Assembly: GCF_000710465.2 (NCBI RefSeq)
Contig: NZ_JAIZ01000274.1
Span: forward strand, 1 to 35,366
Direction of reading: 5' to 3'
DNA length: 35,366 bases
DNA from: Kitasatospora sp. MBT63
Lineage (GTDB): Bacteria > Actinomycetota > Actinomycetes > Streptomycetales > Streptomycetaceae
Shown here one piece after another: positions 26,490 to 32,691 of this stretch. The translations under genes were made by a program, and so were the position numbers. Within the stretch, counting starts at the first letter, position 1, and each line of letters opens with the position of its first letter. The notes beneath the pieces were generated by a model that saw nothing but the letters and a program-made list of their open reading frames with translations, was not told the origin of the DNA and searched no databases.

Positions 26490-29372
<2,883 letters not shown>

Positions 29373-29452
29373 GGTCCTTCGGGCTCCATCGTCATCGTTA
29401 AGCGAACCGGGCAGCGTCCCCGGGCAGGCCACCGGGCCTCGAGCCGGGCCTG

Positions 29453-29480
29453 AAAACAAAAATGCCCCTCGCAGGAGGGG
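29453..29480 (-). terminator. leuS: Intrinsic attenuator terminator upstream of leuS
   Basis: On the minus strand CCCCTC, loop CTGC, GAGGGG (29465-29480) is followed by CATTTTTGTTTT (down to 29453). A T-run of this length is very conspicuous in such GC-rich DNA. It lies about 80 bases before the leuS start and after the leader peptide, the position of an attenuator. Confidence 0.85.
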
Positions 29481-29487
29481 TCGCCAC

Positions 29488-29519
29488 GCCGACTCCGGCC
29501 CCCGCCCGGGGGCGTCGGC
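29488..29519 (-). promoter_or_regulatory. leuS: Leader hairpin between leader peptide and attenuator
   Basis: GCCGAC (29488-29493) pairs with GTCGGC (29514-29519) around an inner CCCCC/GGGGG stem (29499-29503, 29508-29512, loop of four). It is the likely pause or anti-antiterminator stem: its G-run could alternatively pair with the CCCC of the terminator. Confidence 0.6.
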
Positions 29520-29528
29520 CGGTCCTGG

Positions 29529-29567
29529 TCAGCGCGGCCGGCTAAGGAGCAGGCGCACGGTTCGCAT
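29529..29567 (-). CDS. leuS leader peptide with three consecutive Leu codons
   Basis: A 12-codon open frame, MRTVRLLLSRPR, encodes Leu-Leu-Leu with CTG, CTC and CTT, three different codons read by different tRNA-Leu species. CTT is rare in such GC-rich genomes. It is too short for normal gene finders and ends 10 bases before the first leader hairpin and about 50 bases before the attenuator terminator. With low charged tRNA-Leu, a ribosome would stall on the Leu codons and let an antiterminator form, raising leuS transcription. The ATG has no Shine-Dalgarno but sits six bases after a TACCCT box, so translation from a leaderless 5' end is expected. Confidence 0.82.
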   Translation of the reverse strand: MRTVRLLLSRPR

Positions 29568-29573
29568 GGGGTC

Positions 29574-29579
29574 AGGGTA
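29574..29579 (-). promoter_or_regulatory. leuS: -10 box of the leuS leader transcript
   Basis: TACCCT on the minus strand ends six bases before the leader-peptide ATG at 29567, placing the transcript start at that ATG. No convincing -35 box is seen. Confidence 0.55.
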
Positions 29580-29599
29580 CCGCAAGGCCGGCCGCCCGC

Positions 29600-29618
29600 C
29601 GGGCCGATGTCCGGCCCG
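29600..29618 (-). terminator. Hairpin after the TPR regulator gene
   Basis: CGGGCCG (29600-29606) and CGGCCCG (29612-29618) form a 7-bp stem with a 5-nt loop between the TPR gene stop and the leuS leader promoter; it probably ends the TPR transcript. Confidence 0.5.
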
Positions 29619-29672
29619 TGGAGGCCCGGCCGCCCGCGCCCGCTCCGCTCCGGGCGCCCCGCGGCGCCGCTG

Positions 29673-30962
29673 CTACCCGGCGCGCACCGCCGCGTCGAAC
29701 TCCCGCAGCGCCCGCGCCACCCGCCCGGACTGCATGCCGGCCGCCAGCAGCCGGGCCTCGTCCGCGATCCGGTCGGCCTCCTCCTGCTCCCCGGTGCGCC
29801 GGTAGGAGTCGGCCAGCCGGACCATCAGCAGCGCCCTGGCCCGGGCCCGCTCCGGCGAGAGCGCGTCGACGGCCGAGGTGAGCAGCCGGCGGGCCGGCTC
29901 GTGCTCGCCCAGGAACAGGTAGCCCTCCCCCACCATGCCCTCCAGGTCTGCCTGTTCCTGGACGTGGTCCGGTTCGCCGTCGAGGACCTGGAACGCCCGC
30001 TCGGCGACCGCCTCCGCGCTGATCTGCTCGCCCTTCTTGCCGTGCGCCCGGGCGATCCGGCCGAGCTGCAGGGCCCGCTCACGGGGGGTCAGCACCTCGT
30101 CGGCGGCGCGCAGCGCGGTGGAGAGCATGGCGACCGGGTCCAGTCCGCGCCCGCCGGAGTTGTAGGTGGCCTGCACAGCGAGGCAGCCGACCACGCTGAC
30201 CCCGAGCCGCGGGTCCCCGGAGACGTGCGCGGCGCGCAGCGCCGCCACGAAGGCCCGCTGGGCGGCGGCGTCGTTGCCCATGTCGTAGCTGGCCCAGCCG
30301 ACCAGCCGGGCCAGCCGCCCGGCCGCACCGTACAGCTCCCGGCCGAGGCCCTCGCCGTAGCGGCCGAGCTCCAGCAGCTTGCCGACCATCGCCAGCTCGG
30401 CCCGGGCCGGGCCGAGGATCAGGCCGCCGCCGTAGGCGCGCTCCAGGCGCTGCTTGCTGTCGTACGAGAGCCGCAGGTCGGCAAGCTGCTCGGGGGCGAT
30501 CCGCAGGGCGCCCTCGCCGCCGGTCACCTCGGGCGGCGGGGAGGCCCAGTGCCGGGCCGCCTGCTCCAGCTCGTCGCCGCGGAACAGGTCGGTGAGCCGG
30601 ACCGGCGCCGCGTCGGCGCCCGCCTCGCGCAGCGCGGTCTGCGCGGTGTCCGCCGTCCACGGGTCGGTCAGCAGCCGGGGCGAGAGCACCTTGGCGCCGC
30701 GGCTGCCGCCCATCTGGCCCCAGAGCTGCTCGTAGGTGACGGCGATGCCGACGGTGCGGCTGAGCACCTCGCAGACGGTCTGGTCGTGCGGGGAGCGCGG
30801 CACCATGCCCCGGTCCCGCCACTTGTACGGTGCGGTGGAGCTGATCGCGAGGCCGGGCGGCAGCATGGCGCTCACCTCGCGGGCGAGCCGCTCGGGGCTC
30901 CAGCCCAGCTGGTGGAGTATCCGGGCCAGCTCTTCGTTCCGTTTGCGCGCCAGGTCGGCCAT
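29673..30962 (-). CDS. TPR-containing regulator (NsdA-like architecture)
   Basis: A 429-residue protein. The N-terminus (ADLARKRNEELARILHQLGWSPERLAREVSAMLPPG, residues 1-40) resembles a helix-turn-helix of XRE-type regulators, followed by APYKWRDRGMVPRSPHDQTVCEVLSR, a segment typical of streptomycete regulators with an unusual DNA-binding head. The remaining 300 residues are repeated helix pairs of TPR type (for example RELYGAAGRLARLVGWASYDMGNDAAAQRAFVAALRAAHVSGD and GEGYLFLGEHEPARRLLTSAVDAL). This architecture is shared by streptomycete pleiotropic regulators such as NsdA, so a role in development or secondary metabolism is possible but is inference only. ATG start at 30962. It lies upstream of leuS on the same strand and downstream of a tRNA-Ala gene. 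Confidence 0.82.
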   Translation of the reverse strand: MADLARKRNEELARILHQLGWSPERLAREVSAMLPPGLAISSTAPYKWRDRGMVPRSPHDQTVCEVLSRTVGIAVTYEQLWGQMGGSRGAKVLSPRLLTDPWTADTAQTALREAGADAAPVRLTDLFRGDELEQAARHWASPPPEVTGGEGALRIAPEQLADLRLSYDSKQRLERAYGGGLILGPARAELAMVGKLLELGRYGEGLGRELYGAAGRLARLVGWASYDMGNDAAAQRAFVAALRAAHVSGDPRLGVSVVGCLAVQATYNSGGRGLDPVAMLSTALRAADEVLTPRERALQLGRIARAHGKKGEQISAEAVAERAFQVLDGEPDHVQEQADLEGMVGEGYLFLGEHEPARRLLTSAVDALSPERARARALLMVRLADSYRRTGEQEEADRIADEARLLAAGMQSGRVARALREFDAAVRAG

Positions 30963-31116: not shown

Positions 31117-31189
31117 TGGAGCTATGGAGAATCGAACTCCAGACCTCCTGCATGCCATGCAGGCGCTCTACCAACTGAGCTATAGCCCC
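31117..31189 (-). tRNA. tRNA-Ala (GGC), copy 1
   Basis: A complete 73-base cloverleaf. On the minus strand the acceptor arms GGGGCTA and TAGCTCC pair with one G-T wobble, the D-arm is GCTC AGTTGGTA GAGC, the anticodon arm CCTGC ATGGCAT GCAGG has anticodon GGC, and the T-arm is TGGAG TTCGAAT CTCCA. The discriminator is A and no CCA is encoded. It reads GCC and, by wobble, GCT codons; GCC is the commonest alanine codon in this organism. Transcribed alone and followed by a hairpin terminator at 31077-31108. ACAATA at 31232-31237 (TATTGT on the minus strand) may be its -10 box. Confidence 0.98.
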
Positions 31190-32509: not shown

Positions 32510-32582
32510 TGGAGCTATGGAGAATCGAACTCCAGACCTCCTGCATGCCATGCAGGCGCTCTACCAACTGAGCTATAGCCCC
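32510..32582 (-). tRNA. tRNA-Ala (GGC), copy 2
   Basis: Identical over all 73 bases to copy 1, with anticodon GGC. It is the distal member of a tandem pair, 36 bases from copy 3, and is followed by the 32466-32500 terminator. Confidence 0.98.
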
Positions 32583-32618: not shown

Positions 32619-32691
32619 TGGAGCTATGGAGAATCGAACTCCAGACCTCCTGCATGCCATGCAGGCGCTCTACCAACTGAGCTATAGCCCC
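32619..32691 (-). tRNA. tRNA-Ala (GGC), copy 3
   Basis: Identical to copies 1 and 2. It is the promoter-proximal member of the tandem pair, co-transcribed with copy 2; the 36-base spacer between them is not similar to the flank of copy 1. Confidence 0.98.

What the first reader, a model, noticed from the sequence alone, without database searches (positions are those of the whole stretch)
29453..29579. Complete leucine attenuator in front of leuS, including a leaderless LLL leader peptide
All parts of a classic ribosome-mediated attenuator are readable on the minus strand: TACCCT box, a leaderless ATG, a 12-codon peptide MRTVRLLLSRPR with adjacent CTG-CTC-CTT codons, a pause hairpin (29488-29519) and a terminator (29453-29480) ending in CATTTTTGTTTT, all about 80 bases before leuS. 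Using three different Leu codons reports on several tRNA-Leu species at once. A leader-peptide attenuator for a synthetase gene, with a leaderless leader, is unlike the T-box usually expected for aminoacyl-tRNA synthetases. Leader attenuation of Leu genes in actinobacteria has been predicted by comparative work, so the system class is not new, but this instance is strong.
Basis: partly seen in the sequence, partly recalled or inferred. Interest (0 to 1): 0.85.

Follow-up and report, generated by a model that had tools for sequence, protein, structure and literature searches.

The report
Leucine-sensing leader switch before leuS
In front of the leucyl-tRNA synthetase gene of a Kitasatospora-type bacterium lies a 12-codon leader with three leucine codons, a hairpin over its stop codon and a terminator, a switch already described in Streptomyces that is predicted to make more synthetase when charged leucine tRNA runs short and that likely works by parking the waiting ribosome against the terminator.

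Summary
This window holds the ortholog. What I add: (1) all 130 Streptomycetaceae leuS upstream regions examined (123 distinct) carry the element, 127 with LLL, and so do 21 of 40 from other families. It starts 5 nt after the last Leu codon, almost always CTT, and ends 0-2 nt before the terminator; its loop varies from 8 to 102 nt. (3) No conserved helix takes up the terminator's arm; a trpL control did show one. I favour a bridge: a ribosome waiting at CUU lets P1 fold, lies about 7 nt from the terminator and blocks it. ilvB and cimA leaders share the geometry. (4) leuS avoids the codons of the isoacceptor reading the leader's CTT: here 71 of 71 Leu codons are CTG; CTC+CTT is 13/1430 in 34 distinct loci of this type, against 413/1014 in rpoB. 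Nothing was tested by experiment.

The parts
29574..29579 (-). -10 box TACCCT, predicted promoter of the leaderless transcript
   Evidence: Sequence; TAnnnT ends 6 nt before the start codon in 124 of 127 leaders and 7 nt in 3. No sigma-70 consensus promoter was found by the scan.
29529..29567 (-). Leader ORF MRTVRLLLSRPR*, probably starting at the first base of the transcript
   Evidence: ortholog MRAVRLLLSEPR* in S. lividans is leaderless (PMC8079986, passages); 127 of 130 family leaders have LLL, 130 of 130 have the element.
29544..29552 (-). Leu codons CTG CTC CTT; the third (29546-29544) is the likely sensor
   Evidence: Codon 8 is CTT in 123 of 123 twelve-codon leaders; CTT in 146 and CTC in 3 of 149 leaders with full geometry.
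29529..29538 (-). P1 5' arm GCCGCGCTGA (last base of codon 10 to the stop codon)
   Evidence: P1 pairs kept in 99.0% of cells, compensatory changes in 2 of 9 pairs of 32 aligned leaders; 5 nt after the CTT codon.
29483..29492 (-). P1 3' arm TCGGCGTGGC
   Evidence: Pairs with the 5' arm; ends 2 nt before the terminator here, 0-2 nt in 149 leaders.
29495..29522 (-). Inner hairpin CCGGCC/GGCCGG inside the P1 loop; variable, too little room for it in short loops
   Evidence: P1 loop length ranges from 8 to 102 nt.
29453..29480 (-). Intrinsic terminator CCCCTC-CTGC-GAGGGG with tail CATTTTTGTTTT
   Evidence: helix conserved, compensatory changes in 2 of 5 pairs.
26490..29372 (-). leuS, leucyl-tRNA synthetase; all 71 Leu codons are CTG
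   Evidence: TIGR00396; codon count.

Best explanation
This is a leucine-leader attenuator of leuS: a 12-codon ORF, probably translated from the first base of the transcript, is followed by a hairpin (P1) over its stop codon and, 2 nt further, by a terminator, and a ribosome waiting for leucyl-tRNA at the CUU codon is predicted to let RNA polymerase pass into leuS. Steps. [quoted passage not shown] (2) Inferred: when leucyl-tRNA (GAG) is short the ribosome waits with CUU in its A site, which leaves P1 free to fold at its entrance. (3) Inferred, the new part: folded P1 loops out the RNA between, so the waiting ribosome lies about 7 nt from the terminator and prevents its hairpin; leuS is transcribed. 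(4) Inferred: with enough leucyl-tRNA the ribosome reaches the stop codon, melts P1, stands 48 nt from the terminator (18-76 nt in relatives), and the terminator forms. (5) Inferred: the switch senses an isoacceptor that leuS itself hardly needs, so leuS can still be translated when that tRNA is uncharged.
For: Conservation: 130 of 130 family regions (123 distinct), 21 of 40 regions from other families. Of 68 listed model hits outside the family in genomes searched for both, 52 lie on the same strand just before the matched part of leuS (31-190 nt); of the 53 with E<1e-6, 51 do. Geometry: full architecture in 149 of 170 regions, P1 loop 8-102 nt, linker 0 (93), 1 (9) or 2 nt (47) (its pattern required the 6 nt between Leu codon and CCG). 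Stop to terminator 18-76 nt in the 146 leaders where one search found the layout, none below 15. Leaders whose ORF stops early at TAG (L139, L163; L362) keep the P1 strand as RNA though it is no longer translated. The same geometry occurs in 8 of 8 ilvB leaders of the genus and in 8 of 8 fetched cimA leaders, with other helix sequences. Published: a stop codon moved from 28 to 5 bp before a terminator cut termination from ~90% to <10%, and at least 10-15 free nt between A site and hairpin are suggested as needed (PMC4824070, section read). Codon partition. Covariation.
Against: No expression data. At equilibrium the terminator is predicted in every ribosome state, though that test also fails to show the known switch of trpL. 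PMC1262725 reports that mutating the regulatory codons of the S. coelicolor ilvB leader had no effect, and that leader type has the same geometry here. About half of the class sample lacks the element (19 of 40 regions; 154 of 296 genomes without a model hit). Leu-codon avoidance in leuS also occurs where no leader was found (L146, L147, L162, L167) and is only weak in six leader-bearing loci (L145, L151, L153, L163, L168, L169). That a stalled ribosome folds P1 and blocks the terminator is shown by none of my calls.
Confidence: 0.6

Rival explanations
1. Classical attenuator: a stalled ribosome lets an antiterminator form that takes up the 5' arm of the terminator.
For: Called classical by PMC1262725 (text read in part, figures not held). 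Leader, Leu codons and terminator are all present.
Against: With the transcript cut before the 3' arm, the terminator's 5' arm is paired on average 0.02-0.19 in 111 leaders when 24-33 nt are covered (Leu stall; 0.27 at 36 nt, 16 of 111 above 0.5), against 0.50-0.62 for the E. coli trpL control at its Trp-stall positions. In the leuS leaders the value is higher when 50 nt are covered (stop codon): mean 0.39, 36 of 111 above 0.5, the wrong direction. No conserved helix conflicts with the terminator.
Confidence: 0.15
2. Fast attenuator with boundary exchange, as proposed for C. glutamicum ilvBNC: the hairpin before the terminator shares its last bases with the terminator base, and the two trade them.
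For: Very similar layout, leaderless leader, CUU control codon; the antiterminator (36-79) and terminator (77-113) of C. glutamicum overlap by 3 nt (PMC11857589, passages and two sections).
Against: In leuS leaders the terminator stem cannot be extended contiguously into the P1 arm in 144 of the 145 cases examined; in the window a 2-nt linker separates them.
Confidence: 0.12
3. The leader and terminator set a basal read-through level and do not sense leucine; P1 is a polymerase pause or processing hairpin.
For: S. coelicolor ilvB codon mutations without effect (reported in PMC1262725). P1 would place the polymerase in the terminator loop, where a T-G step is mostly kept (the pause consensus is recalled).
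Against: It does not explain the Leu run, the near-invariant CTT at a fixed distance from P1, or that 51 of 53 strong model hits sit before leuS.
Confidence: 0.13

Closest known systems
leuL2-leuS of Streptomyces lividans TK24 (PMC8079986; leuS attenuators of S. avermitilis and S. coelicolor, PMC1262725)
   Same: Orthologous gene, near-identical peptide (MRAVRLLLSEPR*), leaderless transcript, hairpin and U run.
   Different: Kitasatospora-type sequence; P1, its fixed spacing, the lack of a competing antiterminator and the codon partition are added here and would apply to leuL2 as well.
C. glutamicum ilvBNC 'fast' attenuator (PMC11857589)
   Same: Leaderless leader, CUU control codon, hairpin directly before the terminator.
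   Different: There the two hairpins overlap by 3 nt; here they abut with 0-2 nt between. Different gene and amino acids.
E. coli trp attenuator
   Same: Leader peptide with cognate codons, ribosome position decides termination.
   Different: trp has an antiterminator that takes up the terminator's 5' arm (seen); none found here.
LEU element of actinobacterial leuA (PMC1262725)
   Same: Leu-rich leader upstream of a leucine gene.
   Different: Described there as a pseudoknot with a stem between the Leu run and the ribosome-binding site; not compared here.

Membership tests
leuL2-leuS attenuators of Streptomyces | Short ORF with three Leu codons just upstream of leuS | tested here: met
leuL2-leuS attenuators of Streptomyces | Leaderless transcript | tested here: inconclusive
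   TAnnnT 6 nt before the start codon in 124 of 127; a mapped transcript start is known to me only from S. lividans (PMC8079986).
leuL2-leuS attenuators of Streptomyces | Hairpin and U run before leuS | tested here: met
Classical ribosome-mediated attenuator | Leader codons for the amino acid of the regulated gene | tested here: met
Classical ribosome-mediated attenuator | Antiterminator that excludes the terminator | tested here: not met
   (with trpL control); by prediction only.
Classical ribosome-mediated attenuator | Read-through rises when the cognate charged tRNA is short | not testable with these tools
   Needs an experiment.
Fast attenuator (C. glutamicum ilvBNC) | Terminator and preceding hairpin share boundary bases | tested here: not met
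   144 of 145 leaders without overlap.
T-box | Match to the T-box covariance model | tested here: not met
   Only three tRNAs reach a gathering score in the window.
LEU element (leuA) | Pseudoknot with the Leu run paired to the ribosome-binding site | not tested
   -

The most novel reading that the evidence does not exclude
A strap attenuator: P1 does not compete with the terminator but folds away the RNA between a starved ribosome and the terminator, so that the ribosome itself blocks termination. The same layout in the leuS, ilvB and cimA leaders would make it a general actinobacterial design for branched-chain amino acid genes. It is coupled to a codon partition in which the leader senses tRNA-Leu(GAG) while leuS and leuA hardly use its codons.
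Probability: 0.35. Interest if true: 0.75.

Novelty: new member of a known kind. Interest (0 to 1): 0.52.

Why it matters
Most synthetase genes of Firmicutes are under T-boxes (so PMC1262725); about half of the sampled Actinomycetes genomes appear to carry this leader instead, mostly before leuS. If the strap works, terminators can be governed by where a ribosome is parked rather than by rival hairpins, and simple insertions can test it. The codon partition (sensor codon in the leader, almost banned from leuS and leuA) would be a natural case of the selective-charging theory of Elf and Ehrenberg (PMC1183508, passages read) outside E. coli.

Tried and rejected
Equilibrium folding with the 5' end covered shows the terminator at 0.93-0.99 (means) in every state; the trpL control stays at 0.96-0.98, so that test was dropped as blind and replaced.

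A conserved antiterminator: none found. Boundary exchange: 144 of 145 without overlap. T-box or other Rfam regulator: none at gathering scores. A sigma-70 consensus promoter: none found; only the TAnnnT box is consistent.

Codon avoidance as a mark of all branched-chain genes: rejected, ilvB has 86/326 CTC+CTT and cimA 71/281. As a mark of high expression: not supported, rpoB has 413/1014. As strictly tied to the leader: not so, see the exceptions; its p value (0.003 for the ratio leuS to neighbours, 19 with leader and 18 without) ignores kinship, and 3 of 40 loci were dropped for fewer than 30 background codons. In one search frames were extended to the next stop, so its valS count (231/762) holds some bases outside the gene; the valS figure I use is 155/633 from 12 distinct loci, after removing three genes that one search counted twice and one uncertain paralog (L197). 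In one search five loci of the genus type were repeats; the deduplicated figure is 13/1430 instead of 14/1642. What I first called a second leuA group is citramalate synthase.

First scan for ilvB leaders found none because it required a TAnnnT box; one search found them in 8 of 8 loci. One of the 20 stretches (L361, E 0.004) is a chance match beside a tRNA.

In alignment A1 the window row was cut 4 nt short and is shifted by a base in the terminator's 3' arm; this can only lower the pair counts.

Full report
Observation. On the minus strand the window reads TACCCT (29579-29574), 6 nt, then ATG CGA ACC GTG CGC CTG CTC CTT AGC CGG CCG CGC TGA (29567-29529), then a terminator CCCCTC-CTGC-GAGGGG (29480-29465) with tail CATTTTTGTTTT to 29453, and leuS from ATG 29372. 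The terminator is the only one found in 29300-29800 (shuffles: mean 0.0, sd 0.2). The protein is LeuS. The leader alone does not fold unusually well (z -1.16), so I turned to relatives.

Already in print. PMC1262725 (abstract and parts 1-2 of 3 of the text read, figures not held) predicted classical attenuators upstream of leuS in S. avermitilis and S. coelicolor. PMC8079986 (passages read) lists leuL2, MRAVRLLLSEPR*, upstream of leuS in S. lividans, leaderless by 5'-end RNA-seq and followed by a hairpin and U run. The window's MRTVRLLLSRPR* is its ortholog. The best named LeuS match is Kitasatospora mediocidica (90% identity over the N-terminal 157 residues).

Conservation. I examined 130 leuS upstream regions of the family: 30 loci (the best-scoring ones of 150 genomes searched, the window's own locus included), 80 named loci and 20 chosen from other genera; 123 are distinct over 200 nt. 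127 have LLL; the other three (L120, L127, L131) have the same element with two Leu codons in place. TAnnnT ends 6 nt before the start codon in 124 of 127 and 7 nt in 3. The third Leu codon is CTT in 123 of 123 twelve-codon leaders. Of 40 regions that I chose from other families, 19 have a leader with LLL, two more (L134, L153) have two or one Leu codons, and in 19 I found none (L143 keeps a remnant). A covariance model of 32 sequences hits 142 of 296 genomes of the class at E<=0.01. Of 68 listed hits outside the family in genomes also searched for leuS, 52 lie just before the matched part of leuS on the same strand; of the 53 with E<1e-6, 51 do.

Structure. Two helices are conserved: P1, GCCGCGCUGA (29538-29529) with UCGGCGUGGC (29492-29483), and the terminator. 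On 32 diverse sequences 98.9% of cells are paired, 4 of 14 pairs have compensatory changes, and sliding the partners drops pairing to 40-60%. P1 covers the last codons and the stop. Where the ORF stops early at TAG (L139, L163; L362) the P1 strand is kept outside the ORF, so RNA pairing, not the peptide end, is conserved.

Geometry. In 149 of 170 regions (129 of 130 family, 20 of 40 others) the full layout is found: Leu codon (CTT 146, CTC 3), 5 nt, P1, loop of 8 to 102 nt, then 0 (93), 1 (9) or 2 nt (47), then the terminator. The script's pattern fixed the 6 nt between the Leu codon and CCG, so the 5-nt spacing is partly built in; but, which did not use the Leu codon, found only four regions that one search does not place: L130 (bulged P1) and L139 (other terminator), both with the same spacing, the remnant L143, and L167, a chance match. 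The distance from stop codon to terminator is 18-76 nt in the 146 leaders placed, 48 nt in the window, never under 15.

Mechanism. With the transcript cut before the terminator's 3' arm, the trpL control shows its 5' arm taken up when the ribosome stands at the Trp codons (0.50-0.62) and free beyond (0.01-0.06). The 111 distinct leuS leaders show means of 0.02-0.19 with 24-33 nt covered, 0.27 with 36 nt, and 0.39 with 50 nt, i.e. at the stop (36 of 111 above 0.5). So no antiterminator of the trp kind is predicted, and the terminator cannot reach into P1 in 144 of 145 cases, unlike the 3-nt overlap reported for C. glutamicum ilvBNC (PMC11857589, sections 12 and 14 read). What the layout does offer is position: with P1 folded, a ribosome at CUU lies 5-7 nt from the terminator whatever the loop length; with P1 melted by a ribosome at the stop it lies at least 18 nt away. 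PMC4824070 (abstract, sections 10 and 15 read) reports that a stop codon 5 bp before a terminator cut termination from about 90% to below 10%, and suggests that at least 10-15 free nt are needed. I infer that the waiting ribosome, brought near by P1, blocks the terminator. That 5 nt between A-site codon and hairpin suits the ribosome entrance is recalled from frameshifting work. None of this was measured.

Other leaders. Upstream of ilvB in the same genus (8 of 8 loci above the TIGR00118 cut-off) MRTRILVLGGRVG* shows CTT, 4 nt, P1 of 10-12 bp, 0 nt, terminator. In family f19 weak model hits away from leuS lead to cimA: the 8 fetched ones (one, L348, scanned: TIGR00977) have MNNGLLIIGRRAG* and kin, with ATC, 4-5 nt, P1, 0 nt, terminator. 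Against the model, PMC1262725 reports that codon changes in the S. coelicolor ilvB leader had no effect.

Codon partition. leuS in the window uses CTG for 71 of 71 Leu codons, while 13 other window ORFs use CTC or CTT in 173 of 546. Over the parts of leuS held (median about 655 codons), 34 distinct loci of the genus type have 13 of 1430 and 71 other loci 68 of 3150. Controls in up to 11 genomes of the genus: rpoB 413/1014, ileS 374/1104, metG 49/155 (3 loci), valS 155/633 (12 loci), ilvB 86/326, cimA 71/281 (5 loci), leuA 15/410 (9 loci) (one locus of each group and of valS named). CTC and CTT are read by tRNA-Leu(GAG) and CTG by CAG (decoding rules recalled); among the 16 of 67 tRNA matches that I fetched, GAG and CAG have two genes each, CAA three, TAG one. 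So the leader's fixed codon belongs to an isoacceptor that leuS and leuA avoid while ilvB and cimA do not, as the selective-charging theory would favour (PMC1183508, passages read). In the class sample leuS has a median of 2.7% with a leader (n 19) and 24.8% without (n 18), neighbours 44% and 39%, with exceptions on both sides and no correction for kinship. Paper searches for the codon partition and for a stalled ribosome next to a terminator in a leader listed nothing matching (two returned no paper, 84 only titles and abstract starts); only open-licence papers are held.

Verdict. Most likely a true attenuator of leuS, already known in the sister genus; the strap mechanism and the codon partition are the parts worth testing.

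Noticed in passing
L346-L353 (family f19): Leaders with Leu/Ile codons (MNNGLLIIGRRAG* and kin) in front of citramalate synthase cimA, with the same hairpin-terminator layout.
   Followed up: partly
L366-L373, upstream of ilvB: ilvB leader MRTRILVLGGRVG* of the genus has the same layout, last control codon CTT, 0 nt between hairpin and terminator.
   Followed up: partly
window 26490-29372; L250-L257, L259: leuS and leuA nearly lack CTC and CTT codons, unlike rpoB, ileS, valS, metG, ilvB and cimA.
   Followed up: partly
L153 with L295: The leader in front of this leuS reads VASQQQRLIGPR*: a Gln run and one Leu codon, the CTT kept.
   Followed up: no
L145, L168, L169 (family f30): Leaders whose last Leu codons are CTC, with a longer terminator stem and only weak leuS codon avoidance.
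   Followed up: no
L288, L289, L304, L309: leuS avoids CTC and CTT although no leader was found upstream.
   Followed up: no
L362, L363, L365: The same kind of leader stands before a more divergent LeuS (40-43% identical to the query at the N terminus).
   Followed up: no
window 31117-31189, 32510-32582, 32619-32691 (minus): Three tRNA genes with equal scores near leuS.
   Followed up: no
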